A DNA stretch of 64,000 nucleotides from Corynebacterium sp. GTDB taxonomy: Bacteria; Actinomycetota; Actinomycetes; Mycobacteriales; Mycobacteriaceae. The stretch is taken from positions 80,250-144,249 of the forward strand of contig NZ_JAUNLS010000005.1 in the NCBI RefSeq assembly GCF_030532325.1, in the 5' to 3' direction. The position numbers and the translations under genes are program-made. Position 1 is the stretch's first letter; each line of letters starts with the position of its first letter. Below the pieces are notes generated by a model that was not told where the DNA came from, did no database searches, and saw nothing but the letters and a program-made list of their open reading frames with translations. Shown piece after piece: positions 3,113 to 53,722 of this stretch.

Positions 3113-5562
<2,450 letters not shown>

Positions 5563-34039: not shown

Positions 34040-34132
34040 ATGCTCTTCGATATTCGTGCTTCGTTCACACCTCTTGCGGATCAAATCGTGGATTTGATAT
34101 TGGGTTTGTCAATTAGATGCAGCGGCAATTGA
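34040..34132 (+). CDS. 30-aa leader-like ORF overlapping the start of the DNA methyltransferase gene
   Basis: ATG 34040 follows an AGGAG site with ideal spacing. The frame encodes MLFDIRASFTPLADQIVDLI followed by LGLSIRCSGN and stops at 34132, 13 nt inside the methyltransferase frame, whose own ATG 34117 lacks a clear ribosome site. This geometry suggests translational coupling. It could also be the true N-terminus of the methyltransferase interrupted by a frameshift. Confidence 0.45.
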   Translation: MLFDIRASFTPLADQIVDLILGLSIRCSGN

Positions 34133-35700: not shown

Positions 35701-35709
35701 ATTTTAACC

Positions 35710-36663
35710 ATGGCAACTTTTGAAGAAGCTCAGCAAATCCTCGAAGCCTTTGGTTTTACTTCCAAGCAAACCAACATCATGAGCCAGCGCACCTTACTGT
35801 CCCTCTGTGGACTTACGTTGGACACTGACTCCACTTGGGATAAAGCAACCAATGCGCGGATGGGTGTTCGTGCCATTATGGATTGGATCCGCGAGCACCT
35901 TGAGTTTCAGGTAGCTGAAAACACCCGAGAGACCATTCGTAGACAAGTCCTCAAACAATTCACTGAAGTAGGCTTCACGCTTCACAATGACGATGATCCC
36001 AAGCGGCCACCAAATAGTTCGAAGAATTGTTACAAAATTTCCGAGTCGGCGCTCGAGGTAATCCACACTTTTGGAACAGCTGAGTGGGGTTTAGCAGTTG
36101 CCACATACAAGAAAAACTCTCAAACTCAAGTAGAGCTCTACAGTGCAGCCCGAGAACTCGGTTCCTTTGACGTTGTATTTCCTTCAGGCATGGAGATCAA
36201 GCTGCAGGCGGGAGGTCAAAACACGTTGATTGCGGACATGATAGAGAAGTTCTGTCCGCAATTTATTGATGGTGGAAAGATTCTTTATGTTGGCGATGCT
36301 GGAGACAAGTATGTCGTCTACGACACGGAAACCCTAGCTCAGCTTGGGGTAGTTCTGGATAGGCACGGCAAGATGCCCGATCTGATTGTCTTTGATGAGA
36401 AGCGCAACTGGCTATTTCTCATGGAAGCAGCAAGCACCCACGGCCCTGTAGACCACTCGCGCTACCTTGAGCTGCACGATCTTTTCGGTTCTTCATCTGC
36501 GGGACTCGTGCTCGTAAGCTGTTTTCCTGACAAGAAAACCCTGCGTAAGTTTATTGCGGACTTGGCATGGGAAACGGAAGTGTGGGTAGCAGATGAACCA
36601 ACCCATATGATGCACTTGAATGGGTCGCGGTTCTTGGGGCCGTATGAAGCTCCTGGCCGTTAG
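35710..36663 (+). CDS. BsuBI/PstI family type II restriction endonuclease
   Basis: 317 aa, complete. Signature stretches of the family are clear: HNDDDPKRPPNSSKNCYKIS near residue 95, GGKILYVGDAGDKYVVYD near 195, HGKMPDLIVFDEKRNWLFLMEA near 220 (PD...ExA/K-like catalytic region), STHGPVDHSRYLELHDLF, and WETEVWVADEPTHMMHLNG with RFLGPYE at the end. PstI and BsuBI cut CTGCAG, so that site is the prediction. It lies 9 nt after the methyltransferase gene, consistent with one mRNA in which the methylase is made first. Confidence 0.92.
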   Translation: MATFEEAQQILEAFGFTSKQTNIMSQRTLLSLCGLTLDTDSTWDKATNARMGVRAIMDWIREHLEFQVAENTRETIRRQVLKQFTEVGFTLHNDDDPKRPPNSSKNCYKISESALEVIHTFGTAEWGLAVATYKKNSQTQVELYSAARELGSFDVVFPSGMEIKLQAGGQNTLIADMIEKFCPQFIDGGKILYVGDAGDKYVVYDTETLAQLGVVLDRHGKMPDLIVFDEKRNWLFLMEAASTHGPVDHSRYLELHDLFGSSSAGLVLVSCFPDKKTLRKFIADLAWETEVWVADEPTHMMHLNGSRFLGPYEAPGR

Positions 36664-36961
36664 TAATTGAATGCTATGCTTATGAAATTTTAGTCATAAC
36701 CTTGTCGGTCTAAGCTCTGTGGAGGGGGTCCCAGTCAGAATCTTGTCGATGAGTAGGTCTCACTGAGGTTGAGTTAACAGAATGGTTCCGGTTGCGTGGC
36801 CCGACTCGGTGAGCGCAGTGAAGTTCGAAAGACCACGGGAGGGGGATTTGTAAGGAATCGGAGTACCCCACCGCCATCGTCTGCTTAGGTCTCCGGCCTT
36901 GCTGTGTTAATTTCAGCCCAATGTTATTGCCTTCCAGCCTGGGGAGCTATAATATTGGGGC
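36664..36961. other. Intergenic region after the restriction gene
   Basis: About 300 nt with no convincing gene. It ends in a near-consensus promoter for the next gene (listed separately). Two G-rich tracts (GGAGGGGG) are present; I see no strong terminator hairpin. Confidence 0.5.
36927..36953 (+). promoter_or_regulatory. Promoter for a leaderless mRNA of the unknown/ImmA-IrrE pair
   Basis: TTGCCT (36927-36932) and a perfect TATAAT (36948-36953), 15 nt apart. The -10 box ends 8 nt before ATG 36962, so transcription should start at or next to the start codon. Confidence 0.65.
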
Positions 36962-37633
36962 ATGTTAAACATTTCCCAAAGCGCAGACGAGCAACTATTC
37001 CGGAATCTCGTACCTCCTCTGATCGAATGGCTTCAAAACGGCTGGGACCGCTACAATTCTCCCGCTACTGCTTTCCCGAGTAAAGGCCGCGAAAATCGAA
37101 GTGGAATGGTCTGTACGACAGTAATGAAAGATTGTTTCCTTGAAAACGACAACGTTCAGATCGGCCCAGCCATCGTTGATTGCGAAGAAGCCCGTTCTTC
37201 CTTAAGCCTTTCGATCAAGCTGAAGGCGCCTGGGGTATCTATTGTGCTTCGCTCTGACAAGACGTTTGACAAGAGCTTGAGCCAGCCACGCCCAGCGGCG
37301 CGCGCACTAGACAAAGAACCGTCCCAGTTTGCGCTCTTTGAAGACTCCGACATCATTTCCATGTTCGCAAAATCTCCAAGCAAGTTTGCGGTAGTCACGT
37401 GGTCTTGGAAACAGGTGCCGACCGATAGTGAAGTAGGCTATGAAGTCCGATGGGATTTAAAGATGTATTTCTCTGCTCAAGGAGATTCAGTCGCTACTGC
37501 GCGCTTTAAATATGGTTTCAAGACTTCTGGCGTCGCCGGACAATCGCTTGGACAGCTCGAGGCGTTTATCCCGACCGAAAATGACCTCCAGTTCATTGTA
37601 GATGAAGATGCAGAGAAAGATAGGACATCGTAA
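36962..37633 (+). CDS. Unknown protein coupled to an XRE-ImmA/IrrE protein
   Basis: 223 aa, no signal peptide or TM segment, mixed alpha/beta with strand-rich stretches (SSLSLSIKLKAPGVSIVLRS, KFAVVTWSWKQVPTD, GYEVRWDLKMYFSA, ATARFKYGFKTSG). I recognise no family. Its promoter places the transcription start at the ATG, and its stop overlaps the next start by one base (TAATG), so the two proteins are made together in a fixed ratio. That is the usual layout of toxin-antitoxin or effector-regulator pairs. Position next to a restriction system adds to a defence context. Confidence 0.7.
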   Translation: MLNISQSADEQLFRNLVPPLIEWLQNGWDRYNSPATAFPSKGRENRSGMVCTTVMKDCFLENDNVQIGPAIVDCEEARSSLSLSIKLKAPGVSIVLRSDKTFDKSLSQPRPAARALDKEPSQFALFEDSDIISMFAKSPSKFAVVTWSWKQVPTDSEVGYEVRWDLKMYFSAQGDSVATARFKYGFKTSGVAGQSLGQLEAFIPTENDLQFIVDEDAEKDRTS

Positions 37634-38643
37634 TGGGCACCCCCGAGTATGGACCAGGACGTCTCAAGCAGTTACGCCTACGAGAGGGGCTTACCCAAGT
37701 TGAATTTGCTGAAGTAATTGGTTCTTCGCAATACCATGTTTCGCGGATGGAGCAAGGTATAGAGCCGATTCCAGTACAAGTTCTTGCAAAAGCTACACGG
37801 AAATTCGAATTGCCGGCAGAATACTTCAGCCGCCCCGCCCACATGTATGGGCGGGCATCCTTAAATTTTCGCCGGACGAAAATGCCTGCGAAACTACAAG
37901 ACAGGATTAGTGCCCACTTTGCTGAACTAGAAGAAATGATCCAGCAAACCCAACTTCAAATTCCCCAGGCAGGCATTGCGATAGAGCGTCCAGAGTCGGA
38001 AGATGAGCTTTCTTTAGAGGTGATTTCAAAAATTGCCGACAGTATTCGCAGCACTCTTAGACTCGGGGGTGGGCCTGTCGGAAATGTAACAAGGGCAATG
38101 GAGAGTGCTGGGATAGTTGTGGCTCCCCTGAAAATTGAGGGGCTATCGCTCGATGAATTTGAGGGAGTTTCTTCGCCGCAGCCGAACCCCCGGATCCGGG
38201 TAACTGCATACGCGCCTTCTCGGTCTGGAGACAGGCACCGCTTCACCCTTGCCCATGAGCTTGGGCACCTTGTTCTCCATGCTCTGCGTCGGCCTAATAC
38301 AGAATCAGTCCGAGAATCAGAAGCTCACAAATTCGCAGGTGCTTTCTTACTGCCGCAGGAACTAATCGCGGATTCAATCACCGAAACGACCACCTTGGCG
38401 CAGTTTGCAAAGATCAAGTCCAAGACTGGCGTTTCGATACAAGCAATTGTAAGGCGTGCACGTGACCTTTCATTGATCTCTCAAGAAAGACACAAGAGCC
38501 TGATGATCCAAATTTCGAGTCGTGGTTGGCGGAAAGAGGAGCCCGTAGTTGTTCAAATGGAGAGAGAAATCCTCTTTCCGCGAATCGTCGAAGAACTTGA
38601 GTCACGCAATGTAGTGTCGATTTTCACGCCCAAACGACGCTAA
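37633..38643 (+). CDS. XRE-HTH regulator with ImmA/IrrE (DUF955) metallopeptidase domain
   Basis: 336 aa. N-terminal helix-turn-helix (residues about 9-62: LKQLRLREGLTQVEFAEVIGSSQYHVSRMEQG) followed by an ImmA/IrrE domain with the zinc motif HELGHLVLH near residue 208 and a later acidic ligand region (ESEAHKFAGAFLLP). Such proteins cleave or displace a partner repressor, or act as COG2856-type antitoxins. The intact HExxH argues for peptidase activity. Unlike common pairs, the partner is not DUF4411 but the unknown 223-aa protein upstream. Confidence 0.88.
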   Translation: MGTPEYGPGRLKQLRLREGLTQVEFAEVIGSSQYHVSRMEQGIEPIPVQVLAKATRKFELPAEYFSRPAHMYGRASLNFRRTKMPAKLQDRISAHFAELEEMIQQTQLQIPQAGIAIERPESEDELSLEVISKIADSIRSTLRLGGGPVGNVTRAMESAGIVVAPLKIEGLSLDEFEGVSSPQPNPRIRVTAYAPSRSGDRHRFTLAHELGHLVLHALRRPNTESVRESEAHKFAGAFLLPQELIADSITETTTLAQFAKIKSKTGVSIQAIVRRARDLSLISQERHKSLMIQISSRGWRKEEPVVVQMEREILFPRIVEELESRNVVSIFTPKRR

Positions 38644-38909: not shown

Positions 38910-41900
38910 CTAGACCACCGGGAAGATGCCATCCTCCCCGAGGCGCGCGTCGGCGTCGAGAAGCATGGCAATCTCGGCGGCCTTGGCGGCTTCTGCGCTG
39001 TGGGTGGGCAGGCGGCGGCCCTCGATGACCTCGAAGAGCGGGGCGCGGCCCAGCATGCCAGCCTCGAAGCGGGCGCGGCCGGCGGCCAAGCGCTGCTCGG
39101 CGCGCTGGCGCCAGTGCGTTGCAGCCTTATCGCCGCGCTGCTGGCGGATGGCCTCCTCAAAGACCCCGGGGTGGGCGTAGACGATGAGCGCGCCAACATG
39201 CCCGAAGCCCAGCGAGGTCAGCGCGGCGGCCTTCACCGGCTGGCGGGAGCCCAGATCCAGCGGGGAGCGCAGCCACACCAGATTCTTTGCCTTGTCCGCG
39301 ATGAGCGGATCCACGCAGTCGAGGGAGACGTTGGCGGGAATGCGGCCGGTGCGGAAGACATCGATAAGCCCGCCCGTCTGGAAGAGCGCGGCACCCGCCT
39401 TGGAGTGGCCGGTCAGCGACTTTTGCGAAATCACAAAGAGCGGCTGATCCGCATCGCGGCCGATGGCGGGCCACAGCAGGGAATGCAGCTCAGACTCGTT
39501 GGGATCGTTGGCGTTGGTGGAAGTGTCATGCTTGGACAGCACTGAGACATCGTTGGGGCTCAGACCCAAACCGCGCAGGGAGCAAGCCAGGCGGGAGTTC
39601 TCCCGGCCGCGGCCAGCCCCCAGCGCACCCAAGCCGGGGGCCGGGATGGAGGTGTGGGCGCCGTCGCCGTAGGAGGCCGCGTGCGCGACCACCGCGAGAA
39701 CCGGAAGGCCCAGCTCAGCGGCGAGAGAGCCGCGGACCAGCACCGCGGTGCCGCCGCCTTCGCCCTCCAGGAAGCCGCCGCGGCGGCGATCATTGGCGCG
39801 GGCGATGAAGCGCTCATCAATGCCCTTGGCGGTCATAGCTTTGGTCTCCGCGGTGGCATTCATGTCGCCGAAGCCGGTAAGGGACTCCACCTGGACATCG
39901 TCGATGCCGCCGGCGATCACCACGTCCGCCTTGCCCAGAGCGATCTTGTCCACGCCCTCCTCAATGGACACCGCCGCCGTGGCGCAGGCGCCGATGGGGT
40001 GAATCATCGAGCCATAGCCGCCCACCAGGGATTGCATGGTGTGTGCGGCGATGACGTTGGGCAGGGCCTCCTGCAGGATGTCGGAGGGGCGCTCCTCACC
40101 CAGGAAGCGGGTGACAAAGACCTTGTGCAGGGATTCCATGCCGCCGATGCCCGTGCCCTGGGTGGTGGCCACCTGGCCGGGGTGGATGCTGCGCAGCAGC
40201 TCAGCGGGGCTGAAACCGGCCAGGGTAAAAGCATCCACCGCGCTGACCAAGTCCCACACCGCCATGCGGTCCAGGGAATCGAGCATGTGCTCCGGAATAC
40301 CCCAGCGGGAGGCGTCGAAGTCATCCGGCATCTGCGCGGCCACCGTGCGGGTGAGCGTGGCCCTGCGCGGCACGTGCACCGTGGCGCCCTGGCGGCGGGT
40401 GACCTGCCATTCGTCGTCGACCTGTGCGATGGAGGTGAACTCGGGGTCAGCCTCCAGCACGTCGCGGGCGGTGGCCTCAGAGTCCACGGCGAAGGTGACG
40501 TCCCGGTCCAGGAAAACCGCGGTGAGGTCGATGGATCCCTGGTTGACCAGGTGGTACTTGTCCGTGAGCTGGCGGATGCCGCAGCGGGCCACGACCTCGT
40601 CGCGGAAGCGGGAGTAGATCTCTTCCTCGGCGATCTCTTGGGCGCTATCCTCGGCACCGGAGGTGTCATACCAGGCCGGTCGGGGATCCTCGCGCCACTC
40701 TATGAGCCCGGTCATCCACGCCAGCTCGATGACGCCGGCCGCGGTGAGCTCGGCGCTGCCGTCGCGCTGCAGGCCGTACTCAGCCTCGAAGCGGGTGCGC
40801 CCGGAGCCCCAGGAGGAGACCTCGCCGATGCCAGCGATGACCACCATGTCCTCCAGGTCCGTGGAGACCTGGCCCACCGGGGCCGCCAGACGCGGCTGCA
40901 CCGGTTGGTGCTGGTTGGGCAGGGCGGTGATGGTGGCGGGGGCGGTGCTGCCGGTGCTGGTGCTGTCGGTGCTGCCGGCGGGCGAGCTGTTGGTGGGCTT
41001 CGCGTCTGTGGCGTCGGCAGCCAGCGCGGTGAGGGAGACCCCCTCCAGCCCGCCGGTGAGATCGGCCTCGATGGGGGCCTTAGCGGCCGCGGCGCGCTGC
41101 TGCGGGGTGCTCAGCGCCAGCAGCTCAGTGGAGATCTCCTCCGGGCTCCACACGTGGACGCCGGCGGCCTGTGCGGCGGGCACGAGAACGTCGTTGCCAC
41201 CCATGAGGTGGGTGCCGGCCACCCAGCCGATCTTGGCCTGGGCCAAGGTGACCCCCTCCGGCCAGCCGGCCTCCACCTTCCACTTGGCCAGGATGGCATC
41301 CAGTGCGGCCTTGACCTCGCCGTAGGCGCCGTCGCCGCCGAAGGTGCCGCGGTTGGGCGAGCCCGGCAGGACCACGTGGCAGCGGGCGTCGGGCTCGCGC
41401 TGGCTGAGTGCCGAGAGCCCGGCGATGGTGCGCTCCACGGACCACAGCAGCAGGCGGGCTTGGGTTTCGGTGGCCCCGGAGGCATCGGCCAGCGAGCCGG
41501 ATACTCCGGGCGCGGCGAAGGGGAAGGCCAGCGTCGGGGTCAGCGCCGGCTTGAGCACCTTGACCTCGTTGCCCACGGATTCGCGCTGCTCGGAGCCGAT
41601 CCACTCGATGAGCGCGTCAACATCGCGGTAGCTGGAGAGGTTGGCGGGCACCAGCCACAGTGCGGAGCCGGCCGCGCCGTGGCGAGCGTAGAGCGTACGC
41701 GCGAACTCCTTGCGGGCTTGGCTCACCCGCGAGGCGGTCATGATGACGGTGGCGCCGCCCTCCAGAAGCCGGGCGACGAGCGCCTCGGCGATGGAGCCGG
41801 GTGCGGCACCCGTGACCAGGGCGACATCCGCGGCGAACTCCCCGGCAGGGGAGTCTGCCGTGGGCTGCTCGGCGGCGCGGGCGATGGCCTCCAGGCGCTT

Positions 41901-44900
41901 GCTGAGTGCGCTGGTGCCCGTGCCCTGCGCCGGGGCGTTGGCGTTCTCGGCACGCGCCCACCAGCGGGCCTGGGCGGCCACGGTGGCGCCGGTGCCGCGG
42001 AAGGACTCGGGGGAAGCCAGCGGATCCTCGGCGGGGATTTCTCCCAGGGCCACTCGGGCGAGGCGCTCGCGGGCGGTGGCCCAGGAGTCGTCGAAAAGCA
42101 CGGCCTTGGCGGCGTCGAAGGCAGGGGTGACCGCCTTGACCCAGCCGGTGCCCAGCTCCGCCTCGACGGCGTCGATGACGCTGGTATCGGGTGCCTCGGC
42201 GCTCTCCGGGGCGTTATCCAGGCCCAGCTGGGCGAGGGTCTGGCGGGCCAGGGTGGCCAGGATGCCGGCCTCTCCCGTCACGCTCTCGGCGTAGGCCTCC
42301 AGTGCTGCTGAATCCACCACGCCACCGCCGCCGGCGGAAGCCGCCGAGCCCTTGGACACGCTCACGCCGTGGGCGGTGGCGACGTTGGCGATGGCGGCGT
42401 CGATGAGCTCGTGTGCCGCCGCCTTGGTGGTGGCCGCGGTGGGCAGGGTGCTCAAGGAGCCGCCGCGCACGGAGTCCTCCTCGCGGGTGCCCAGCAGGAT
42501 CTCGGCCTCGACGTGGGGCACCCAGGACTGCGGCAGGCCCCAGGTGCCGGTGACGTACTCGCCCACCGCGGCGGGCTTGAGGCCAGCAGCGCCGAAGAGC
42601 TGGCGCAGGCGCGCGGCGACGGCCTCACCCAGCACCGGGCCAAAGGCGGAGTAGCCGGGCGCAGCACTGGCCACGGTGGCGCGCAGGGAGGAGACGTCGG
42701 CGTCGGCGGCGCCATCGATGGCGGGCACGTCGATCTCGGAGGACATGTCCATGAGCAGCTGGTTGCGGCGGGAGGAGACACCGTTGGTGAGCTCCTCGAC
42801 GGTATCGCTATCCACAATCTGCTCGCGGCGGATCTTGTTCTGGAAGGCAAAGAGCACCATAATGGCCTCGGCCGCGCCGAAGGGCAGCTCCGGGGCGGCG
42901 CCTGCTGCTTGTGCCGGTGCGGACTCTGTATGTGCCGGCGCTGCTTCTGCCGCGGCGGGAGGCTCGGGTGACTCGACAGTGCTGGTTTCGGGGTTGTCGG
43001 GTTCGGTGCCCTCGGGTTCGGTGGGGGAGGGGAGGGCGTCGGCAAGCATGACGCGCTCCTGATCGCGCTCGACGTTGAGGACGTCGATGCCGCTGACCCC
43101 GGCCACCGCCAGGGAGCGCTGCGCCAGGTTGCTCAGCGTGGGCGAGGAGGCCAGGCCCACCTCGATGATCTGATCCACCTTGTCAAAGAGGAACTCCTGG
43201 GTCTCAATCCAGCGCACCGGGGAGGCGAACTGCCAGGAGAGCAACTCGATGAGCAGCAGGCGGCCCAGCGCCTGCGGGTCCATGGACTCCGCGTCGATGC
43301 CCTCGAGTTTTCCGGAGGGAGCCAGCGGGGCGACGGCGTCCACAAAGTCCTGGCTGAGCTCGAAGGGGCGGGCCACCAGGTTGGGGATGTAGCGGCCCAC
43401 GAGGTTCTCCAGGGGAAGCTCGGCGGGCAGCAGCTCATCGAGCTTCTCGGCGAAGGCCGGCACGCCCTCGCGCAGCACGCGGGAGTGGAAGGGGACGTCG
43501 ATGCCGGGCACTAGCACCGCGGCGCGCGGGGCGCGGGCAGTGACCTTATCCACCAGGGCCTGAATACCCGCTTTGGTGCCGGCCACGGAGTACTGCTGGC
43601 CGCGGATGTTGTAGTTGACAATCTCCAGGAACTCGCCGGTCTCCTCGGCGAGGGAGTCCACGAAGCGATCCACCTCCTCGCCGTCCAGGCCCACCATGTT
43701 GGGGCGCAGTGCGGCCATGGCGTAGTTGGAGTTGCCCTCCTCATCGCGCGGCACCAGGCTGCTCATCGCCGAACCGCGCGAATAGACCACGTCAATGACG
43801 CCCTCGAGCTCAAAGATGTGCGCCAGGGAGGCCAGCGCGGTGTACTCACCCAGGGAGTGCCCGGCGTAGAAGGAGGTGGGGGCTAGGGCGTCGGCGTCGC
43901 GTAGGCGCTCGGTCTGGGCGTAGGCCACCACGGCCAGGGCCACCTGGGTGAACTGGGTCAGGTGCAGCACACCCTGCGGGTGCCGGAAGGTGGTGCCGCG
44001 CACGTGGAGCTCCGTGGGGTTTTCATCCACGATGCGCTGGATGGAAAAACCATGGCGGCTGCGGGTATGCCGGTCAGCGCGGCGCCAGATCTCACGGGCG
44101 GCGGGGCTGGCGGCGCGGTCGCCTGCACCCATGCCCTCGGTCTGGATGCCCTGGCCGGGGTAGACGTAGGCGGTGCGTGGGGCGGCCATGAGCGCTTGGG
44201 CGCGGGAGACCACCGTGCCGTCGATGCGGCAGGTGACCTCGAGGGCGGCGTGGATGCCCTTGCGGCCCACGCGCTCGACGGTGATCTCGATGTCATCTCC
44301 CAGCTGCACCATGCCGTACATGGAGTAGGTCCAGCCCACCACCCGGCCGTGGCGGGCGGCGACGTGCTGGGCGGTGGCAGAAAGCCACATGCCGTGCACC
44401 AAGGGGGCGTCGAGGGCCACCAGCTGCGCGGCGTTGAAGGAGGTGTGGATGGGATTGTAATCGCCGGAGACCAGCGCGAAGGGCGTCATGTCTTGCGGGG
44501 CGGTGACATGCGTGCGGTCCACGAAGGAACGCGGGGTGGCTACCACCTTGGCGGCGGACTTGCCCCCGCCCCACTCGGGTGCGGGAGCCGGGGCGGCGGT
44601 GCCGCTGGCGCGGCCGCGGATGGCAAAGCGCTGCACCTGGGTGGCCACCACCGCGCCGGGCTCGCCGGCCGGGCCGGGGGCGACCTCGGGGCCGTTGCGC
44701 AGCTCGAGCTCCACTGTGACAATGCGCCCGGAGGCGGATTCCTCGATGGAAGTACAGCGCGAGGTGACGTCGATGCGGCGGGAATCAGCCAACTGCTCCA
44801 GGGGCACGCGCAGATCCACCACGTGGTCCAGGTGCACGGCGTTGAGCAGGCCCTCGATTACGGGGTAGCCGTCGGCGAGCTGGCCGGAGCCCAGCGCGGT

Positions 44901-47900
44901 GTAGATGGCCGGCCAGCAGGGGCCGACGAGCACGTCCGGGGTTCCTACTGGGGTTGGGTTGCTTGGGCTGGCGGGGTTGCTTGGGCTGGCGGGGTTGCTT
45001 GGCTGTAGGGCGGCGCCGGTGACCGCGGTGTGCGCCGCCAGCAGGGAGGCCGGCAGGTGGAAGGAATAGTGCGCCACTCCGAAGGGAGACTCCGGCAGGC
45101 CCACGGTCTCCGGCTCGATGCGGGGCATCTCGGTGATGGAATCGCCCTGCTCCGCGGTGGAGCCCACGCCGGCCAGGCCCTCAAGCAGGCTAAAGACGGC
45201 CTGGGGCAGGCGCTCCTCGGAGACCACCGGGGAGCCGCCCGTGGCCACGTCCGCGGGGAGATCCACCGGCACGGTGACCTCGCGGACGTAGAAGGGGCGC
45301 TGCTCAGCGGGCAGATCGTCCCAGTAGGAATCAGCGGTGATGACGATCTCCCAGCCTCCTTCCTCGTCCTGGCGCAGGCTGAAGGCCTCGGCGTCCATCT
45401 CATAGGCCGGGTTGGCCATGAGGTGGCCGTGCCACAGCAGGGTGGGGGAGGAGGTGATGAACTCGGCGGCGTTACGAGCTGAGCGCAGGCGGGAGAAGAC
45501 CTCCTCGGCGGCGGCGCCGGCCCTGAGTAGGGCGTCGGTGGTGGCCTGCTCGAAGCGGGCGAGCAGCTCCGCCACCGGCTCGTTCTTGCGCGTGATGCCG
45601 GCCACGGCCACCGGGCCGGGGATGATGCGGACTTGATCGGCGGTGTAGCGCGGATCCTGGGCCTGCCACAGGGTGTCCTTGCCAAACCACGTTGTGAGAT
45701 CGCCGTCGATGGCCGGCACCCAGGGCATGGGCTTGACGTGCTTGTAGTGCAGGGAGATCCACCAGGCGGCGTCGCGCGGGCTGACGGTGACCTCGTGGGC
45801 GCTGGGGTAGGCCTCGAGGAGGGTGGCCACGGCGCGTGGGGCGTCGCTGACCTCCTCGACGTTGGCAAAGAGCGTGGGGATCTCGCCGTGATCGGCCGGA
45901 TTAAGGCGGGCCTCGACGCGGTGGAGGAGATCGAAGAAGCGGTCATCCCAGGTGGGATCCACAAAGGGGTGGGCCAGTTCCACGAAGCGCTCCAACCACT
46001 GCGCGTAGGTCATGGTCTCCACGTCGCCGAAGTAGGGCTTGGAGGTCTTGTTGAGCGCGGCGATGATCTCCGCGCGGTGGGCGGCGTAGTCCTCGATGCG
46101 CAGCGAGGTGATGAGCCGGGAGGCCGCGGCGAAGGAGTTGTCTAGATCGTGGATATCGGCCAGCAGGTGGGACTGGGAGGAGGCCACGCCCTGGGTTCCG
46201 CGGCCGCGGCCCACCCAGCCGCCGTTGACCTTAGGATCGATGCCCGGGGTGTTTACCAGCAGATCCTTGACCGAGTCGGTGGCCTTGGCCTCCTTGGTGG
46301 CCATGGCGACGGTGCCGATGAAGACGGCGTCGACAGGCGCGGCGGGCAGATCGTAGGCCAGCGCCCAGCGGCCCGTGAGGTACTCCGCGGCGCGTTCGGG
46401 GGAGTAGATGCCGCCGCCCACGGCCAGCACCACGTTGCGGTGCGCGCGGACCTCGGCGTAGGTCTCCAGCAGCATGTCATCGAGGTTGACCCAGGAGTGG
46501 TGGCCGCCGGCGTGGCCGTCCTCGACCTGCATGATGATCTGGTGCTGTGGGTAGGCCGCGGCGATGGCGAGCACCGCGCGGATCTGGGCTGCGGTACCCG
46601 GCTTGAAGGAGATGTAGGGGAAGCCCTCGGCATTGAGGCGGGCGATGAGCTCGCCGGCCTCCTCCACCTCCGGGATGCCCGCGGAGATGCAAACTCCGTT
46701 GAAGGAGGCCCCGGCCGCGCGGGCCTTGGGCACGATGCGGCTTTGGCCAAACTGCAGGTTCCACAGGTAGCGGTCAAAGAACATGGTGTTGAACTGGGCG
46801 GTGCGCCCCGGGCGAAGGTGCTGCTCCATGACGGCGAGGTGGGAACGGAAGACCTCGTCGGAGTACATGCCGCCGCCGGCCATCTCCGTCCAGTGACCGG
46901 CGTTGGCGGCCGCGGCCACGATCTCCCCGTCCGCGGAGGTGGGAGTCATGCCGCCGAGCATGATGGGGGACAGGCCCGTGAAATCGGAGAAGCGGGTCTG
47001 CGTCACCGTGCGCCCGCCCGGCAGGGTGACCAGGCGCGGGGCGAACTCGGAGTAGTCCACCGCGGCGGGCAGGGAGGCACCGGGGGTGGCCAGGGCGTCG
47101 ATCTCCTGCGGGGAGCCGGCACCGATGACGGTGATGCCGGTGCCCTCCAGCACGCGCCGGGTCATGGCGGCCAGTGCGCGGTCAAGCACGATGAGCTGGC
47201 GGGAAGTCAGTTGTGCCAGCGCCTGTGGCCAGTTGTGCTGGTGCACCAGGATGGCCTGGGACTGCTCGGAGGCCGTGGCGGTGTCCAGCCCGCAGTCCGC
47301 GGCCAGCGCCACCGTGCGCTCGGCGGCGGGGATAAGCAGTGGGTTGTGGAAGGGCAGGGCGACGTCCAACTCATCGAAGCGCGGCTCGAGTGGGTCGCCG
47401 CCGGCCTCGCGTTTCTCCAGCGCCGCGTTGAACTCGGTGGTCGTTGCCTCGAGGGCCTCGCGGGTGGCCTGCAGATCCTCCGGCGTGCCGGAGAGTGCTA
47501 CGTGGCGGCGGCCGTTGATCACGGCGATGACCGTGCTGCCGCGCAGGTGGGCGCGGATGAGCTCCTGGTCCAGGCCGCGCACGGAGAGCATGTGGGAGCG
47601 GGTGTCGCTGCCGTAGGTGGAGGAGGCGGCCGTGCCCATGAGGGTGGCCAGCGCGAGGGCCTCGGCGGGATTGACCGCGGCCACCTCGCCCAGGCTGCCC
47701 TGGGAGTGCCCGGCGGTCTCAGTGGACTCGCTGACCTCTACGCCGAGCTCGCGTAGCTGCGCGAGTGCGGCCACCTGGCTGAGCACGATGCCGGGGATGG
47801 ACACGGCCGGGGAGGCGTCCTGCGCGGTGGCCTGCCAGGGGGTGCCCTGCTCGCCGGCGGTGATGAGCTGGCTGAGGCGCTCCAGCGCGCCGGGGCAGGC

Positions 47901-48080
47901 CGAGGCGATAACACGTGCTGCGGGGCCGGTGAGCTGGCGTGCTTCGCTGAGGACCTCCCGCAGGTAGGCGGTGGTGGCCGGGGTGCTCGCGGCGGTGACA
48001 ATCCAGGACTGCCAGGCGCAGCCTTGGCCGGCGAAGAGCAGCGCGGGGGAGTGCAGCGAATGCAACGGGGTCAAAGACAT
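38910..48080 (-). CDS. fas: Type I fatty acid synthase (single-chain, 3056 aa)
   Basis: A multienzyme making long-chain acyl-CoA for phospholipids and corynomycolates. Domains in order, rough residues: acetyltransferase (LFAGQGCAWQSW near 15, AGHSQGSLGE near 125); enoyl reductase (GLSPIMLGGMTPTSADGE near 370); dehydratase/MaoC hot-dog (SGDYNPIHTSF near 1210); malonyl/palmitoyl transferase (YPGQG near 1310, AGHSLGEYTALA near 1407); ACP with the phosphopantetheine Ser in TNGVSSRRNQLLMDM near 1770; ketoreductase (ADVALVTGAAPGSIAEALV near 2083); ketosynthase (Cys in HPIGACATAAVS near 2698, His in KHDTSTNAND and LTGHSKAG). No phosphopantetheinyl transferase domain follows, as usual in bacteria. 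Three low-complexity linkers (around 1030-1045, 1690-1730, 2360-2385) join domains. Nested inverted repeats lie upstream of ATG 48080. Confidence 0.96.
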   Translation of the reverse strand: MSLTPLHSLHSPALLFAGQGCAWQSWIVTAASTPATTAYLREVLSEARQLTGPAARVIASACPGALERLSQLITAGEQGTPWQATAQDASPAVSIPGIVLSQVAALAQLRELGVEVSESTETAGHSQGSLGEVAAVNPAEALALATLMGTAASSTYGSDTRSHMLSVRGLDQELIRAHLRGSTVIAVINGRRHVALSGTPEDLQATREALEATTTEFNAALEKREAGGDPLEPRFDELDVALPFHNPLLIPAAERTVALAADCGLDTATASEQSQAILVHQHNWPQALAQLTSRQLIVLDRALAAMTRRVLEGTGITVIGAGSPQEIDALATPGASLPAAVDYSEFAPRLVTLPGGRTVTQTRFSDFTGLSPIMLGGMTPTSADGEIVAAAANAGHWTEMAGGGMYSDEVFRSHLAVMEQHLRPGRTAQFNTMFFDRYLWNLQFGQSRIVPKARAAGASFNGVCISAGIPEVEEAGELIARLNAEGFPYISFKPGTAAQIRAVLAIAAAYPQHQIIMQVEDGHAGGHHSWVNLDDMLLETYAEVRAHRNVVLAVGGGIYSPERAAEYLTGRWALAYDLPAAPVDAVFIGTVAMATKEAKATDSVKDLLVNTPGIDPKVNGGWVGRGRGTQGVASSQSHLLADIHDLDNSFAAASRLITSLRIEDYAAHRAEIIAALNKTSKPYFGDVETMTYAQWLERFVELAHPFVDPTWDDRFFDLLHRVEARLNPADHGEIPTLFANVEEVSDAPRAVATLLEAYPSAHEVTVSPRDAAWWISLHYKHVKPMPWVPAIDGDLTTWFGKDTLWQAQDPRYTADQVRIIPGPVAVAGITRKNEPVAELLARFEQATTDALLRAGAAAEEVFSRLRSARNAAEFITSSPTLLWHGHLMANPAYEMDAEAFSLRQDEEGGWEIVITADSYWDDLPAEQRPFYVREVTVPVDLPADVATGGSPVVSEERLPQAVFSLLEGLAGVGSTAEQGDSITEMPRIEPETVGLPESPFGVAHYSFHLPASLLAAHTAVTGAALQPSNPASPSNPASPSNPTPVGTPDVLVGPCWPAIYTALGSGQLADGYPVIEGLLNAVHLDHVVDLRVPLEQLADSRRIDVTSRCTSIEESASGRIVTVELELRNGPEVAPGPAGEPGAVVATQVQRFAIRGRASGTAAPAPAPEWGGGKSAAKVVATPRSFVDRTHVTAPQDMTPFALVSGDYNPIHTSFNAAQLVALDAPLVHGMWLSATAQHVAARHGRVVGWTYSMYGMVQLGDDIEITVERVGRKGIHAALEVTCRIDGTVVSRAQALMAAPRTAYVYPGQGIQTEGMGAGDRAASPAAREIWRRADRHTRSRHGFSIQRIVDENPTELHVRGTTFRHPQGVLHLTQFTQVALAVVAYAQTERLRDADALAPTSFYAGHSLGEYTALASLAHIFELEGVIDVVYSRGSAMSSLVPRDEEGNSNYAMAALRPNMVGLDGEEVDRFVDSLAEETGEFLEIVNYNIRGQQYSVAGTKAGIQALVDKVTARAPRAAVLVPGIDVPFHSRVLREGVPAFAEKLDELLPAELPLENLVGRYIPNLVARPFELSQDFVDAVAPLAPSGKLEGIDAESMDPQALGRLLLIELLSWQFASPVRWIETQEFLFDKVDQIIEVGLASSPTLSNLAQRSLAVAGVSGIDVLNVERDQERVMLADALPSPTEPEGTEPDNPETSTVESPEPPAAAEAAPAHTESAPAQAAGAAPELPFGAAEAIMVLFAFQNKIRREQIVDSDTVEELTNGVSSRRNQLLMDMSSEIDVPAIDGAADADVSSLRATVASAAPGYSAFGPVLGEAVAARLRQLFGAAGLKPAAVGEYVTGTWGLPQSWVPHVEAEILLGTREEDSVRGGSLSTLPTAATTKAAAHELIDAAIANVATAHGVSVSKGSAASAGGGGVVDSAALEAYAESVTGEAGILATLARQTLAQLGLDNAPESAEAPDTSVIDAVEAELGTGWVKAVTPAFDAAKAVLFDDSWATARERLARVALGEIPAEDPLASPESFRGTGATVAAQARWWARAENANAPAQGTGTSALSKRLEAIARAAEQPTADSPAGEFAADVALVTGAAPGSIAEALVARLLEGGATVIMTASRVSQARKEFARTLYARHGAAGSALWLVPANLSSYRDVDALIEWIGSEQRESVGNEVKVLKPALTPTLAFPFAAPGVSGSLADASGATETQARLLLWSVERTIAGLSALSQREPDARCHVVLPGSPNRGTFGGDGAYGEVKAALDAILAKWKVEAGWPEGVTLAQAKIGWVAGTHLMGGNDVLVPAAQAAGVHVWSPEEISTELLALSTPQQRAAAAKAPIEADLTGGLEGVSLTALAADATDAKPTNSSPAGSTDSTSTGSTAPATITALPNQHQPVQPRLAAPVGQVSTDLEDMVVIAGIGEVSSWGSGRTRFEAEYGLQRDGSAELTAAGVIELAWMTGLIEWREDPRPAWYDTSGAEDSAQEIAEEEIYSRFRDEVVARCGIRQLTDKYHLVNQGSIDLTAVFLDRDVTFAVDSEATARDVLEADPEFTSIAQVDDEWQVTRRQGATVHVPRRATLTRTVAAQMPDDFDASRWGIPEHMLDSLDRMAVWDLVSAVDAFTLAGFSPAELLRSIHPGQVATTQGTGIGGMESLHKVFVTRFLGEERPSDILQEALPNVIAAHTMQSLVGGYGSMIHPIGACATAAVSIEEGVDKIALGKADVVIAGGIDDVQVESLTGFGDMNATAETKAMTAKGIDERFIARANDRRRGGFLEGEGGGTAVLVRGSLAAELGLPVLAVVAHAASYGDGAHTSIPAPGLGALGAGRGRENSRLACSLRGLGLSPNDVSVLSKHDTSTNANDPNESELHSLLWPAIGRDADQPLFVISQKSLTGHSKAGAALFQTGGLIDVFRTGRIPANVSLDCVDPLIADKAKNLVWLRSPLDLGSRQPVKAAALTSLGFGHVGALIVYAHPGVFEEAIRQQRGDKAATHWRQRAEQRLAAGRARFEAGMLGRAPLFEVIEGRRLPTHSAEAAKAAEIAMLLDADARLGEDGIFPVV
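44956..45004. repeat. 18-bp tandem repeat inside fas (linker)
   Basis: Two full copies and one partial copy of GGGTTGCTTGGGCTGGCG encode a repeated PSNPAS linker between the enoyl reductase and dehydratase regions. In-frame, so copy-number change would only lengthen the linker. Confidence 0.8.
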
Positions 48081-49944: not shown

Positions 49945-50973
49945 ATGTCTAAAAAGGTATCCAAAAACAAAAAGGATCAACGCACAAAGAAGCAGAAGGA
50001 CATCAAGACTCCGCCGCGGCTGAGCAAGCGCCGCGTCATCGCGGCGGCGAAGCGGGTGGGCCTGCACTACGAGGAGTTACAAGACGGCACACCGGCGCTG
50101 CGCATTCCCGGCGGGCGCATCGGCTTTTCTGTGGATGAGCACCAGGGCTTCCTGCACAGCACCGGCTATTGGGACAAGGACGTAGAGTTCAACCCAGACG
50201 CGCCGCCGATTGAGCTGCAGATTAATGAGCTTAACCGTGGCCTCGTTCCCGGCACCGTCAAGGCCGTGCCCTGTGGGGGATCCGCGCGCCACTGGCACGT
50301 GGAGGTCGCCGCGCTTGTCTTCCCACTGGATCGCGCCACCAACGCGCAGCTCGATCTCATGATCGCCACGCAGGCCAAACGCATGGTCGAGGCATTCAAG
50401 AGGCTCGACGCCGAGCTTGATGGCACACCCCGCCCGCACGCCGTTGCGCAGCCCACGGGAACCGGGGTGCGCCCGGTGGCGCGGAAGCGTACCAGCGCCA
50501 CCTATGACATCCAGGAGACTGATTGGGGGCGCTTCGTGGAGTTTTTCCTGCCCTTCGTGCTTGATGTGGAGGATTTCTATGCGGATGGCTACCTGCCGGA
50601 GGACGTTGACAGGATTACCCTTCAGGGGTCCTGCTACGACATGGAGATTGAGCCCGCCTATGACGGGACGGAGGATATCCTATTCACTGCGACTGTGCCG
50701 GCCGCGCGCTGCACGTGTGACTTTGCACAGGTGTTGGAGTGGTCCAGGCAGACCAACGAGTGCCAAGACGTTATCACCACGTGCGTGGTGGTGGACAATG
50801 ATGAGCTCTTCCTTCACTGCAGCGCCAGGATGGTCACCGAATGGGGACACACCATGCAGCAGTTCCTGACGGCGGGGCCGGGGCTCGTCCCGTCGCTGCG
50901 GTCCTGTGCAACGGATTTCCTTGAGGAATTTAACCCAGGCCAGTTCGAGAGCTTCCAGGACGTCGCGGCTTAA
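49945..50973 (+). CDS. YbjN-domain-containing protein
   Basis: 342 aa. A Lys-rich N-terminus (MSKKVSKNKKDQRTKKQKDIK) precedes two YbjN-like domains (about 30-155: LSKRRVIAAAKRVGLHYEEL ... HWHVEVAALVFPLDR; about 185-335: WGRFVEFFLPFVLDVEDFYADG ... LFLHCSARMVTEWGHTM). YbjN proteins have a type III chaperone-like fold; roles in corynebacteria are unknown. GGGGGG precedes ATG 49945. Its stop codon coincides with the stop of the truncated fadD copy at 50970. Confidence 0.75.
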   Translation: MSKKVSKNKKDQRTKKQKDIKTPPRLSKRRVIAAAKRVGLHYEELQDGTPALRIPGGRIGFSVDEHQGFLHSTGYWDKDVEFNPDAPPIELQINELNRGLVPGTVKAVPCGGSARHWHVEVAALVFPLDRATNAQLDLMIATQAKRMVEAFKRLDAELDGTPRPHAVAQPTGTGVRPVARKRTSATYDIQETDWGRFVEFFLPFVLDVEDFYADGYLPEDVDRITLQGSCYDMEIEPAYDGTEDILFTATVPAARCTCDFAQVLEWSRQTNECQDVITTCVVVDNDELFLHCSARMVTEWGHTMQQFLTAGPGLVPSLRSCATDFLEEFNPGQFESFQDVAA

Positions 50974-50975
50974 CG

Positions 50976-51041
50976 GGACGCTGAGCGCTCTTTCAGCAGC
51001 GCGAGCAGGTCCGCCTGCACCTCGCGGCGGCGGACCTTGCC
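50976..51041. repeat. 66-bp direct repeat, copy A (duplicated fadD 3' end)
   Basis: Identical over 66 nt to 51989-52054, which is the coding 3' end of fadD. On the minus strand, copy A still reads ...ALLKERSAS then Arg and a stop (TAA at 50970-50972), so it looks like the original fadD terminus cut off from its gene. Confidence 0.9.
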
Positions 51042-51114
51042 GATAAAAACGCTGTAGTGTTGTCACTGAGACATGTGTTCCTAGGGGGGGATAGTCCTGC
51101 AGCCGGTCATGTGA

Positions 51115-51142
51115 TTGCGATCTCACTAGTTAATAATAAGGT
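51115..51142 (+). promoter_or_regulatory. Candidate promoter of the secreted-protein gene
   Basis: TTGCGA (51115-51120) and TAAGGT (51137-51142), 16 nt apart, in an A/T-rich stretch ahead of ATG 51172. Confidence 0.35.
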
Positions 51143-51171
51143 GAGGCGATATTAGGAAGAGGAATGTTTTT

Positions 51172-51513
51172 ATGAGGCGAATAGCTAGTCGATTTCTATT
51201 AATCGCTGGTGCGTTCTCTTTCGCGCTGACGCCTGTTCCCCCTTCGGCGTTGGCAGCTGCAGTTACGGCTCAATGCCAAGTGATAAAAATTGGACTTGGT
51301 GGGGATATCGTTGGCCACGTTTATGGAAATGCTTCGAACCTCAACGATGCCAAGAAAGACGCGAATCGGTACGTTCCATTCGGGCACTATAAGCGGCATT
51401 GCAAGGCAGTTAGTCCGCGTAAATCTGGGTATTTTCCCGGAGGTGGCGGGGGCTTTAGAGGGGGAAGTTTCGCTGCCCCTGGGGCGGAAACGGGGGACTG
51501 GGGCAGGGGTTAA
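51172..51513 (+). CDS. Small secreted protein with Gly-rich C-terminus
   Basis: 113 aa with AGGAAGAGGA before ATG 51172. The signal peptide is MRRIASRFLLIAGAFSFALT...ALAAA. The mature part of about 85 residues has two Cys (AQCQVIKIGLGG and KRHCKAV), is basic, and ends in a Gly-rich tail (YFPGGGGGFRGGSFAAPG). I recognise no family. It is the main cargo gene of the repeat-flanked segment and is exported, so an extracellular or surface role is likely. Confidence 0.65.
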   Translation: MRRIASRFLLIAGAFSFALTPVPPSALAAAVTAQCQVIKIGLGGDIVGHVYGNASNLNDAKKDANRYVPFGHYKRHCKAVSPRKSGYFPGGGGGFRGGSFAAPGAETGDWGRG

Positions 51514-51536
51514 AATTACAAAACTGTCATGAAATC

Positions 51537-51935
51537 TTAGTCTTCGATGTTCCGAGTCGGTGTCCAGCGCTCAAGTTTTCTGAATCCAACGCTGCTCGGA
51601 AAAGCATCTGCTGGTGCGCGTTCTTCGTCCAAAAGGAAAAAGGATGTTAAGGGTTCATCGTGACTGGTGAGAACCTTATCGGTGGCATGGACAATTGTTG
51701 TGTAGATAAAAAGCCGCAGATCTTTGTGGTTCTCGTGAGGTCGTTCAATCTTGAATTGAGAGATGAGATCTTCCTGCATTTCCTTAGAGTCTATTTCGGA
51801 CGCTTCAGCGCATGTGAAAAGGATGCTAATGCCCTCGTGTTTTTCGGCTTTGCACACTCTGTTGAGATACCGATTGTGAGCCCGTTCTAAGCTGGGCTCA
51901 TTCGCCACAAAATAAGTGTCCACTGCAACAATCAT
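51537..51935 (-). CDS. 132-aa hypothetical protein
   Basis: Starts MIVAVDTYFVANEPSLERAH with AGGA about 8 nt upstream of ATG 51935. Strand-helix alternation (IVAVDTYFV, ISILFTCAEAS, RLFIYTTIVHATDKVL, SFFLLDEE) suggests a compact alpha/beta fold; no TM or signal. It converges with the secreted-protein gene (23-nt gap) inside the repeat-flanked segment. No family recognised. Confidence 0.6.
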   Translation of the reverse strand: MIVAVDTYFVANEPSLERAHNRYLNRVCKAEKHEGISILFTCAEASEIDSKEMQEDLISQFKIERPHENHKDLRLFIYTTIVHATDKVLTSHDEPLTSFFLLDEERAPADAFPSSVGFRKLERWTPTRNIED

Positions 51936-51982
51936 TAAACAGTCCTATCCGCTGAATGTCTTCGTGCAGCTTAGCTGAACGC

Positions 51983-53722
51983 TTAGCTGGACGCTGAGCG
52001 CTCTTTCAGCAGCGCGAGCAGGTCCGCCTGCACCTCGCGGCGGCGGACCTTGCCCAGCTGGTCGGAGGCCAGGTGCTCGAAGTGGTAGAAGGTACGCGGG
52101 ACCTTGTAGCGGGTCAGCCGCTGGCGGCAGAACTCCTTCATGCCCTCGGGGTCGAGGGCGGCGCCGTCGTGCAAGATGACGCAGGCCACCACGTCCTCGG
52201 AGCCATCGGCGCGCGGGCGGCCCACGATGGCCACGTCGGTGACGTCGGGGTGCTCGCGGATGACCTCCTCGACCTCCGCGGGGTAGACGTTGAAGCCGCC
52301 GGTGATCACCATTTCCTTGATGCGGGAGACGATCTTGATAAAGCCATCGGGCTCCATGACGGCCATGTCCCCGGTGCGGAACCAGCCGTTGTGGAAGGCC
52401 TTGGCGGTGGCCTCCGGGTTGTTGAGGTAGCCCTGGAAGACCTGCGGCCCGCGGGCCAGCAGCTCGCCGGGGGTGCCATCCGGCTGGGTCTCGTCAAGGT
52501 TATCCGGGTTGGCAATGCGGATCTCGGTGTCGGGGAAGGGGATACCGATGTAGCCAGGGCGCCGGTTGTGGTTCATGGGGTTGCCCACCAGCACCGGGGC
52601 GGTTTCCGTCAGGCCGTAGCCCTCCACCAGTAGCCCGCCGGTCATCGCCTCCCACTCGGTGACGGTCTCGGTGGGCAGGGTGGCCGCGCCCGAGAGGCTG
52701 TTGGCCACGCCTTCGATGCTGATGTCCTTGGCGCGGGCGGCCTCCATGATCTTGGTGTAGAGCGTGGGAACACCCGGCAGCCAGGTGGGCGGGTGCTTCT
52801 TCATGATGTCCATGAGCAGTGGAATCTTCGGCGCCGGGGTGAGGATGAGCTCGCCGCCGATGTACACGCCCAGCGCCGCGATGAGCGTGAGGCCGTAGGT
52901 GTGGAACATGGGCAGCGCGGCGAGCATGCGCTCCGGCTTCTGGCCCAGCGCGGGCACCCAGGCCTCGCCCATCTTGACGTTGGCGCAGATGTTGCCGTGG
53001 GAGAGCTGCGCGCCCTTGGGCGCGCCGGTGGTGCCGGAGGTGTAGAGGATGAGGGCGGTGTCGGAGGGGGTGACGGGGGCGTCGCCAAGCTGGCGCCCGG
53101 TGCCGCCGATGGCGCTGCCGGTGAGGACGTTCCAGCCCACGGTATTGGGCGCGGGGCCGGTGAGCTGGTTGCGCTTGTCGCGGATGAAGGGCAGCGGGAT
53201 GCGCAGCAGCGCTTGCTGGCGCCGCGGCATGGCCTCGGTAATGTCCACGGAGACGATGGTCTCCAGCGGGGTGGTGGAGCGCAAGGACTCGAAGGTGGGG
53301 CTGACCTTGTCCCACACGATGGCCACGCGGGCCTGATGATCCTGGAACATCGGCTCCAGCTCGCCGGCGGTATACAGCGGATTGTGCTCCACCACGATAG
53401 CGCCCAGCTTGAGCACCGCGTAGAAGGCCGCCACGTGCTGGGGGCAGTTGGGCAGGGCGATGGCCACGCGGTCACCGGGGCGGATACCAAAGGCCTTGAG
53501 GCCTGCCGAGGCTGCCCGGACCATCGCGTCCAGCTCCCGGTAGTTCATGCGGCGGCCGAAGAACCAGGTGGCGGGCCAGTCGCCGTGGGCGGAGAGGTTG
53601 TCGTTGTAGAAGTCCAGCAGCGTGGCCTCGCCGTAGTCCAGGGTGTGCGGCGTCCATTCCGCGTAGTGCTTGAGCCAGGCTTTGGACTGGTAGGCAGAAG
53701 CGGCGGCGGGGGATTCGGGCAC
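51983..53722 (-). CDS. fadD: Long-chain acyl-CoA/AMP ligase (FadD), copy 1
   Basis: 579 aa ANL-superfamily enzyme that activates fatty acids with ATP. AMP-binding motif ILYTSGTTGAPKGAQLSHGN near 235, GYGLTETAP near 380, the GWFRTGDMAVMEPDGF and KEMVITGGFNVYPAEVEEV motifs, and the catalytic Lys region KVPRTFYHFEHLASDQLGKVRRRE. AAGGAG precedes ATG 53722. It is closely similar to the next fadD copy, a tandem duplication. Its 3' 66 nt are repeated at 50976, and a palindromic operator-like site lies 43-63 nt upstream of the start. Confidence 0.93.
   Translation of the reverse strand: MPESPAAASAYQSKAWLKHYAEWTPHTLDYGEATLLDFYNDNLSAHGDWPATWFFGRRMNYRELDAMVRAASAGLKAFGIRPGDRVAIALPNCPQHVAAFYAVLKLGAIVVEHNPLYTAGELEPMFQDHQARVAIVWDKVSPTFESLRSTTPLETIVSVDITEAMPRRQQALLRIPLPFIRDKRNQLTGPAPNTVGWNVLTGSAIGGTGRQLGDAPVTPSDTALILYTSGTTGAPKGAQLSHGNICANVKMGEAWVPALGQKPERMLAALPMFHTYGLTLIAALGVYIGGELILTPAPKIPLLMDIMKKHPPTWLPGVPTLYTKIMEAARAKDISIEGVANSLSGAATLPTETVTEWEAMTGGLLVEGYGLTETAPVLVGNPMNHNRRPGYIGIPFPDTEIRIANPDNLDETQPDGTPGELLARGPQVFQGYLNNPEATAKAFHNGWFRTGDMAVMEPDGFIKIVSRIKEMVITGGFNVYPAEVEEVIREHPDVTDVAIVGRPRADGSEDVVACVILHDGAALDPEGMKEFCRQRLTRYKVPRTFYHFEHLASDQLGKVRRREVQADLLALLKERSASS
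51989..52054. repeat. 66-bp direct repeat, copy B (3' end of fadD)
   Basis: Identical to 50976-51041. It encodes the last 22 codons of fadD copy 1 before the final residue and stop. In the insertion model this copy restored the reading frame after integration. Confidence 0.9.

What the first reader, a model, noticed from the sequence alone, without database searches (positions are those of the whole stretch)
50970..52054. 1-kb element inserted at the 3' end of fadD with 66-bp perfect duplication
Positions 50976-51041 and 51989-52054 are identical over 66 nt. The second copy is the true 3' end of fadD; the first still reads in frame to its own stop (ending SAS-R instead of SASS) and lies directly against the converging YbjN gene, as an undisturbed fadD end would. 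The enclosed segment is A/T-richer and carries a secreted protein gene and an unknown gene. This is how site-specific elements integrate at a gene's 3' end and regenerate it, but no integrase is inside, so it may be a minimal satellite, a remnant, or a novel carrier of a secreted product.
Basis: partly seen in the sequence, partly recalled or inferred. Interest (0 to 1): 0.75.

Follow-up and report, generated by a model that had tools for sequence, protein, structure and literature searches.

The report
Toxin-immunity-like cassette inserted beside fadD
A Corynebacterium seems to have taken up a small foreign DNA piece that probably encodes a secreted antibacterial protein and its antidote; the piece sits at the end of a fatty-acid gene between two copies of that gene's last 66 letters, so the gene stays whole.

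Summary
Window 50976-51041 and 51989-52054 are identical over 66 nt (72 of 74 extended left) and enclose 947 bp at 48.5% GC (median here 64.5%). Copy 1 is the old ybjN-fadD junction: in the 11 other Corynebacterium genomes with a strong ybjN match, the two stops overlap (7), lie 2 bp apart (3) or 18 bp apart (1). The insertion is real.

The integrase reading is not supported: no recombinase was found in the window or beside fadD at 89 other junction loci (88 genomes), and the genome has no third close copy of the 66 bp. The flanks fit a single crossover with DNA carrying a fadD end, which has a laboratory precedent; an integrase would leave the same pattern.

The cargo is the more interesting part. 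The secreted 113-aa protein and the 132-aa protein belong to a gene-pair family, often with a third secreted gene, that matched no family library convincingly. The secreted protein's family has hits in 41 of 242 Corynebacterium genomes. Near-identical units of about 0.5-0.9 kb lie in different contexts. Toxin plus immunity is the best reading; activity is untested. Long flanking duplications are not a rule of the family.

The parts
   Evidence: no Pfam hit; strong matches in 11 other genomes lie next to fadD
50976..51041 (.). copy 1 of the last 66 bp of fadD (left repeat), adjoining ybjN as in relatives; no start codon in the fadD frame
51042..51988 (.). inserted DNA, 947 bp, 48.5% GC
   Evidence: absent at the junction in the 11 relatives checked
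51172..51513 (+). 113-aa protein, putative secreted toxin ('tox'): signal peptide by eye, two conserved Cys, invariant KRHC
51537..51935 (-). 132-aa partner without signal peptide (by eye), putative immunity protein ('imm')
51969..51992 (.). 12-bp near-tandem repeat of the fadD end / junction (GCTTAGCTGAAC GCTTAGCTGGAC)
51989..52054 (.). copy 2 of the 66 bp, the working 3' end of fadD
51007..51037 (.). imperfect inverted repeat inside the 66 bp, ending 4 nt from the breakpoint (folding z -3.1 for 51001-51045, only -1.4 for 50976-51060)
51983..53722 (-). fadD (long-chain-fatty-acid-CoA ligase), intact

Best explanation
A two-gene cassette (small secreted Cys-containing protein plus a partner without signal peptide, most likely an interbacterial toxin and its immunity protein) was acquired horizontally and inserted between ybjN and fadD. 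Shown: the repeat, the empty junction in relatives, the gene family and its near-identical units in different contexts. Inferred: the incoming DNA carried a fadD 3' end next to the cassette, and a single crossover inside the shared 66 bp (after circularisation, or with an illegitimate join on the other side) placed the cassette so that one fadD end stayed with ybjN and the other completes fadD. No dedicated integrase is needed. Inferred, not shown: the secreted protein harms competing bacteria and the partner protects the producer.
For: Empty site: in the 11 other genomes with a strong ybjN match (E below 1e-38) the ybjN and fadD stops overlap in 7, are 2 bp apart in 3 and 18 bp apart in 1; five weaker matches (E 2e-4 to 9e-4) were not examined. 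Flank logic: copy 1 has the chromosomal left side (ybjN stop) and the element's right side; copy 2 has a different version of the stop on its left (GCTTAGCT against GCTTAACG, 6 of 8 matching) and the chromosomal right side, as a single crossover in shared sequence would leave them. Precedent: in an E. coli assay, 56 of 60 clones gave the PCR product diagnostic of a lacZ-end duplication; 14 sequenced ones had 109-950 bp, ascribed to truncated circular molecules and a single crossover (PMC3240628: passages; section 12 read). Cassette: 49 blocks in 46 loci, drawn from the hit lists, hold both genes in 31, tox only in 11, imm only in 7; in 29 of the 31 tox precedes imm on the same strand (some blocks are orthologous, so not independent). 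tox and imm distances correlate over 25 of the 31 (Mantel r 0.86, 0 of 2000 permutations; shared descent contributes). Mobility: the unit at G000:C32 is 93% identical over 852 bp to G151/G156 with nothing else aligned, while fadDa is 76% and fadDb 82-84%; two copies in G065 share 909 bp at 94.5%, G221 and G126 737 bp at 98%. 9 of 45 pair loci other than the window hold a recombinase or transposase, 3 of which supplied the query.
Against: No donor was found: none of the 45 other pair loci has a fadD beside the pair (one distant AMP-ligase about 3 kb from a tox-only block). A site-specific event gives the same flank pattern. tox and imm match no known toxin or immunity family, so the function is by analogy. 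Some tox-domain proteins are lipoproteins without KRHC and without a detected imm, which may mean another role. In G036 an eroded fadD-end copy lies 644 bp from fadD with a breakpoint that I read as within about 4 bp of the window's, a possible hint of a preferred site. Structure prediction could not be run.
Confidence: 0.55

Rival explanations
1. Site-specific integration: a minimal satellite or cis-mobilizable remnant whose attachment site is the fadD 3' end, moved by an integrase in trans.
For: Gene-end target, regeneration of fadD and direct repeats enclosing the segment. An inverted repeat lies near the breakpoint. An eroded fadD-end copy in G036 has nearly the same breakpoint. G000 holds one tyrosine recombinase with a 408-aa open frame at C33:11477, beside two with 308-309-aa frames that look like XerC/XerD (that naming is recalled).
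Against: No recombinase in the window or at 89 other fadD junction loci in 88 genomes (as a control the XerC-like query found the XerD-like gene at 2.6e-58; downstream sequence 0.3-6.9 kb, median 3.1 kb). No third close copy of the core in the genome. One of 88 other genomes has a plausible fadD-end copy. Pair units elsewhere share no ends by eye.
Confidence: 0.2
2. Target-site duplication of 66 bp by staggered breakage and fill-in, or end joining of foreign DNA.
For: A single clean repeat pair flanks the insert.
Against: No Ku gene found in G000 (among 14 control genomes the family rang in Bacillus subtilis only). The left side of copy 2 still resembles the ybjN-fadD junction for 8 bp beyond the repeat, which a target-site duplication does not predict.
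Confidence: 0.1
3. The pair is not antibacterial; the secreted protein and its partner have a cell-envelope or host-directed role.
For: No known toxin domain. Lipoprotein variants without a detected partner exist.
Against: Frequent pairing (31 of 49 blocks), patchy distribution (41 of 242 genomes), partner genes without tox (7 of 49 blocks) and near-identical units in different contexts fit toxin-immunity modules better.
Confidence: 0.25

Closest known systems
Stand-alone toxin-immunity cassettes of polymorphic toxin systems (PMC3482391; passages seen)
   Same: small toxin gene next to a partner gene, spread by recombination; partner genes without toxin also occur
   Different: short free-standing secreted protein, no large carrier protein seen, no recognised toxin or immunity domain, often a third secreted gene upstream
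Secreted protein bacteriocins with immunity protein (general knowledge, recalled)
   Same: signal peptide by eye, small size, conserved cysteines, adjacent partner
   Different: no convincing match in the family libraries used; activity untested
Single-crossover insertion-duplication, seen in an assay for homology-facilitated illegitimate recombination (PMC3240628; passages and section 12 read)
   Same: foreign DNA inserted at a gene's 3' end with duplication of that end
   Different: 66 bp here against 109-950 bp in the 14 sequenced clones there; donor unknown
Cis-mobilizable elements / integrase-less islands at gene 3' ends (recalled; search listing only)
   Same: direct repeats of a gene end around cargo without integrase
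   Different: only 1 kb; no related element with integrase found at fadD

Membership tests
Integrase-dependent or cis-mobilizable element | recombinase inside or adjacent | tested here: not met
   none in the 64-kb window by phmmer
Integrase-dependent or cis-mobilizable element | related elements with recombinase at the same site in other genomes | tested here: not met
   0 of 89 fadD junction loci in 88 genomes, 0.3-6.9 kb of downstream sequence each, median 3.1 kb; six single-sequence queries, one of them wrong, so limited
Integrase-dependent or cis-mobilizable element | repeats at both ends that regenerate the target gene | tested here: met
Integrase-dependent or cis-mobilizable element | excision as a circle | not testable with these tools
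   no reads available
IS / MITE-like element | terminal inverted repeats and a short target duplication | tested here: not met
   no inverted repeats of 16 nt or more at the insert ends (shorter ones not tested); the repeat is 66 bp; the left end has no match better than E 0.002 in the 241 other genomes
Toxin-immunity pair | secreted or delivered protein with adjacent partner across relatives | tested here: met
   31 of 49 blocks hold both genes; secretion judged by eye only
Toxin-immunity pair | known toxin or immunity domain | tested here: not met
   no convincing match in Pfam, PHROGs, NCBIfam, PADLOC or PDB sequences; PHROGs saw window proteins only, PADLOC four proteins, NCBIfam the tox family and the window imm
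Toxin-immunity pair | toxicity and neutralisation | not testable with these tools
   needs experiment
Single-crossover insertion-duplication | flanks reassort between chromosome and donor versions of the shared sequence | tested here: inconclusive
   pattern fits but the donor sequence is unknown

The most novel reading that the evidence does not exclude
The tox-imm family (with or without the upstream secreted gene) is an unrecognised corynebacterial antagonism system whose units of about 1 kb spread without any recombinase by borrowing the 3' ends of neighbouring genes as homology arms, so that each insertion restores the gene it enters.
Probability: 0.1. Interest if true: 0.75.

Novelty: new member of a known kind. 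Interest (0 to 1): 0.42.

Why it matters
If the pair is a toxin and its immunity protein, it belongs to a family with hits in 41 of 242 Corynebacterium genomes (the count includes lipoprotein variants and fragments) that the libraries used do not name. The genus is common on skin and in the airways (general knowledge). The fadD junction would also be a clear case of a tiny cargo entering beside a metabolic gene without harming it and without an integrase of its own.

Tried and rejected
Long flanking duplications as a rule of the family: 5 of 49 blocks have flanking direct repeats of 40 bits or more (window, L107, L078 and two neighbouring imm copies in L158), against 8 of 300 control blocks. 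That is not a clear excess, and the L158 repeats lie directly beside the two imm copies. L107 (109 bp, 83%, a gene end) and L078 (45 bp, 89%) remain suggestive. The two pairs of G162 together are enclosed by 191 bp at 82%, which one search did not count. A presence/absence case in related species (G088 against G126) shows no long duplication.

fadD as a hotspot: among 88 other genomes two gave a direct match to the own fadD end downstream at E up to 1e-3: G036 (30 bp, 87%, E 2e-6), which is plausible, and G148 (16 bp, E 3e-4), which looks like chance, since three loci, the window among them, gave minus-strand matches of 4e-4 to 7e-4. G078 has a degraded toxin-like region beside fadD, similar to the left neighbour of the pair in G156:C37 (234 bp at 75%, 127 bp at 76%). 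Too few to claim a hotspot.

Plasmids, phages, viruses: no match to the insert DNA in plasmids or to imm in plasmids and phages; none to the tox subset A3 or the exact 66 bp in viral contigs. IS ends: the left end of the insert has no relative in 242 genomes beyond chance hits. Rfam and tRNA: one sub-threshold Rfam match and no tRNA. The PDB match of the tox profile to a helminth TGF-beta mimic (E 0.015) and the sub-cutoff NCBIfam match (E 0.002) are treated as chance. A mosaic test of fadD gave no clear recombinant tract. End joining: no Ku found.
Full report
OBSERVATION. The repeat is real: 66 identical nt at 50976-51041 and 51989-52054, 72 of 74 when extended left. The enclosed 947 bp is 48.5% GC against a median of 64.5% for 947-bp windows; 3 of 631 are as low. 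GC3 is 0.48 for tox, 0.50 for imm, 0.93 for fadD. The genome has 2.49 Mb in 33 contigs and the insertion lies inside contig C24, about 12 kb from its end.

EMPTY SITE. One search found ybjN matches in 17 of 242 genomes: the own one, 11 others with E below 1e-38, and five with E 2e-4 to 9e-4 that I did not examine. In the 11, the ybjN and fadD stops overlap in 7, are 2 bp apart in 3 and 18 bp apart in 1. Copy 1, whose fadD stop overlaps the ybjN stop in the same way as in the 7, is therefore the ancestral junction, and the segment was added later. In the fadD frame copy 1 is preceded by a stop inside the insert and has no start, so it is a remnant (read).

HOW IT WENT IN. Copy 1 has the chromosomal left flank and the insert's right flank; copy 2 has the insert's left flank and the chromosomal right flank. 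Just left of the 66 bp the copies read GCTTAACG and GCTTAGCT, 6 of 8 identical, and the second is part of a 12-bp near-tandem repeat (51969-51992). So the incoming DNA seems to have carried its own, slightly different, fadD end (inference). A single crossover in the shared 66 bp explains this. A precedent: in an E. coli assay, 56 of 60 clones gave a PCR product diagnostic of a lacZ-end duplication, and 14 sequenced ones had 109-950 bp, ascribed to truncated circular molecules and a single crossover (PMC3240628, passages, section 12). An integrase would leave the same pattern, but none was found in the window or at 89 fadD junction loci from 88 genomes (median 3.1 kb downstream), and the genome has no third close copy of the core, only the 86% end of the second fadD. 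End joining is unlikely, as no Ku gene was found. The repeat contains an imperfect hairpin ending 4 nt from the breakpoint (z -3.1 for a 45-nt stretch, but -1.4 for an 85-nt one); that it favoured a break is speculation. No donor was found: none of 45 other pair loci has a fadD beside the pair.

CARGO. tox homologs were found in 28 of 242 genomes with the window protein and 41 of 242 with a profile (this includes lipoprotein variants and fragments); imm homologs in 15 of 242 with the window protein. I fetched 46 loci drawn from these hit lists, not all hits. They hold 49 blocks: 31 with both genes, 11 tox only, 7 imm only; several blocks are orthologs in related species, so they are not independent, and a diverged partner may have escaped the profiles. 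In 29 of 31 tox lies upstream of imm on the same strand; only the window and G156:C37 (L069) are convergent. In tox, two cysteines (one within KRHC) and the KRHC motif are invariant over 21 sequences. In 19 of 49 blocks a third protein with a signal peptide by eye lies upstream, in some only as a fragment (the profile was built from these loci); one member has a sub-cutoff match to alpha-amylase inhibitors (E 0.048). The window lacks it. tox and imm distances correlate over 25 of the 31 pairs (r 0.86, 0 of 2000 permutations); shared descent contributes.

MOBILITY. Near-identical units sit in different contexts: G000:C32 against G151 and G156, 852 bp at 93%; two copies in G065, 909 bp at 94.5%; G221 against G126, 737 bp at 98%; the imm part of G156:C37 against G102, 497 bp at 98%, the latter at a contig end. 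For G000 against G151/G156 the fadD genes are 76% and 82-84%. G151 and G156 hold the unit in the same context: the unit is 99.6% identical, the 9.8 kb around it 92.6%, the fadD region 84-87%. 9 of 45 pair loci other than the window hold a resolvase, serine recombinase or IS110-like gene, three of them the sources of the queries, against 0 of 89 fadD loci, whose stretches were mostly shorter. The block boundaries show no common ends by eye.

WHAT THE FAMILY DOES NOT SHOW. Long flanking repeats are not general: 5 of 49 blocks against 8 of 300 controls. A pair in G088 lies in about 2 kb that is missing from G126, with no long duplication. Among 88 other genomes only G036 has a plausible fadD-end copy.

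FUNCTION. Neither tox nor imm matches a family at a convincing level: Pfam, PHROGs, NCBIfam, PADLOC, PDB sequences. The best reading is a secreted antibacterial protein with its immunity protein, by organisation and evolution only. Paper searches on corynebacterial bacteriocins, polymorphic toxins and secreted toxins (listings of 12 of 28, 12 of 25 and 10 of 69 papers) showed no description of such a pair; this does not prove absence.

VERDICT. A confirmed and probably recent insertion, most likely ordinary in mechanism, carrying a member of a small, mobile and apparently unnamed family of secreted protein plus partner.

Noticed in passing
window 34117-38643: About 50% GC island with an Eco57I-type methylase, a BsuBI/PstI-type restriction enzyme, an unknown ORF and an IrrE/HTH protein, next to a giant 3056-aa gene at 38910-48080 (fatty-acid synthase type I by eye)
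   Followed up: partly
L078:5319-5798 and 18 other blocks: Third gene upstream of tox in 19 of 49 blocks, signal peptide by eye, sub-cutoff alpha-amylase-inhibitor match
   Followed up: partly
L288 / L244 (G036): Eroded copy of the fadD end 644 bp downstream of fadD, with a small membrane-protein-like frame between
   Followed up: partly
L106 about 4348-4740 (G078): Degraded toxin-like region beside fadD, similar to the left neighbour of the pair in G156:C37
   Followed up: partly
L107:3230-3338 and 4634-4740 (G224): Another pair flanked by a duplicated gene 3' end, 109 bp at 83%
   Followed up: partly
L057, L059, L060: tox-domain lipoproteins (by eye) with KQNC instead of KRHC; no imm found near the G189 and G133 copies
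   Followed up: no
window 5652-6494 and 7041-7928: Direct repeats at about 69% identity, probably tandem paralogs
   Followed up: no
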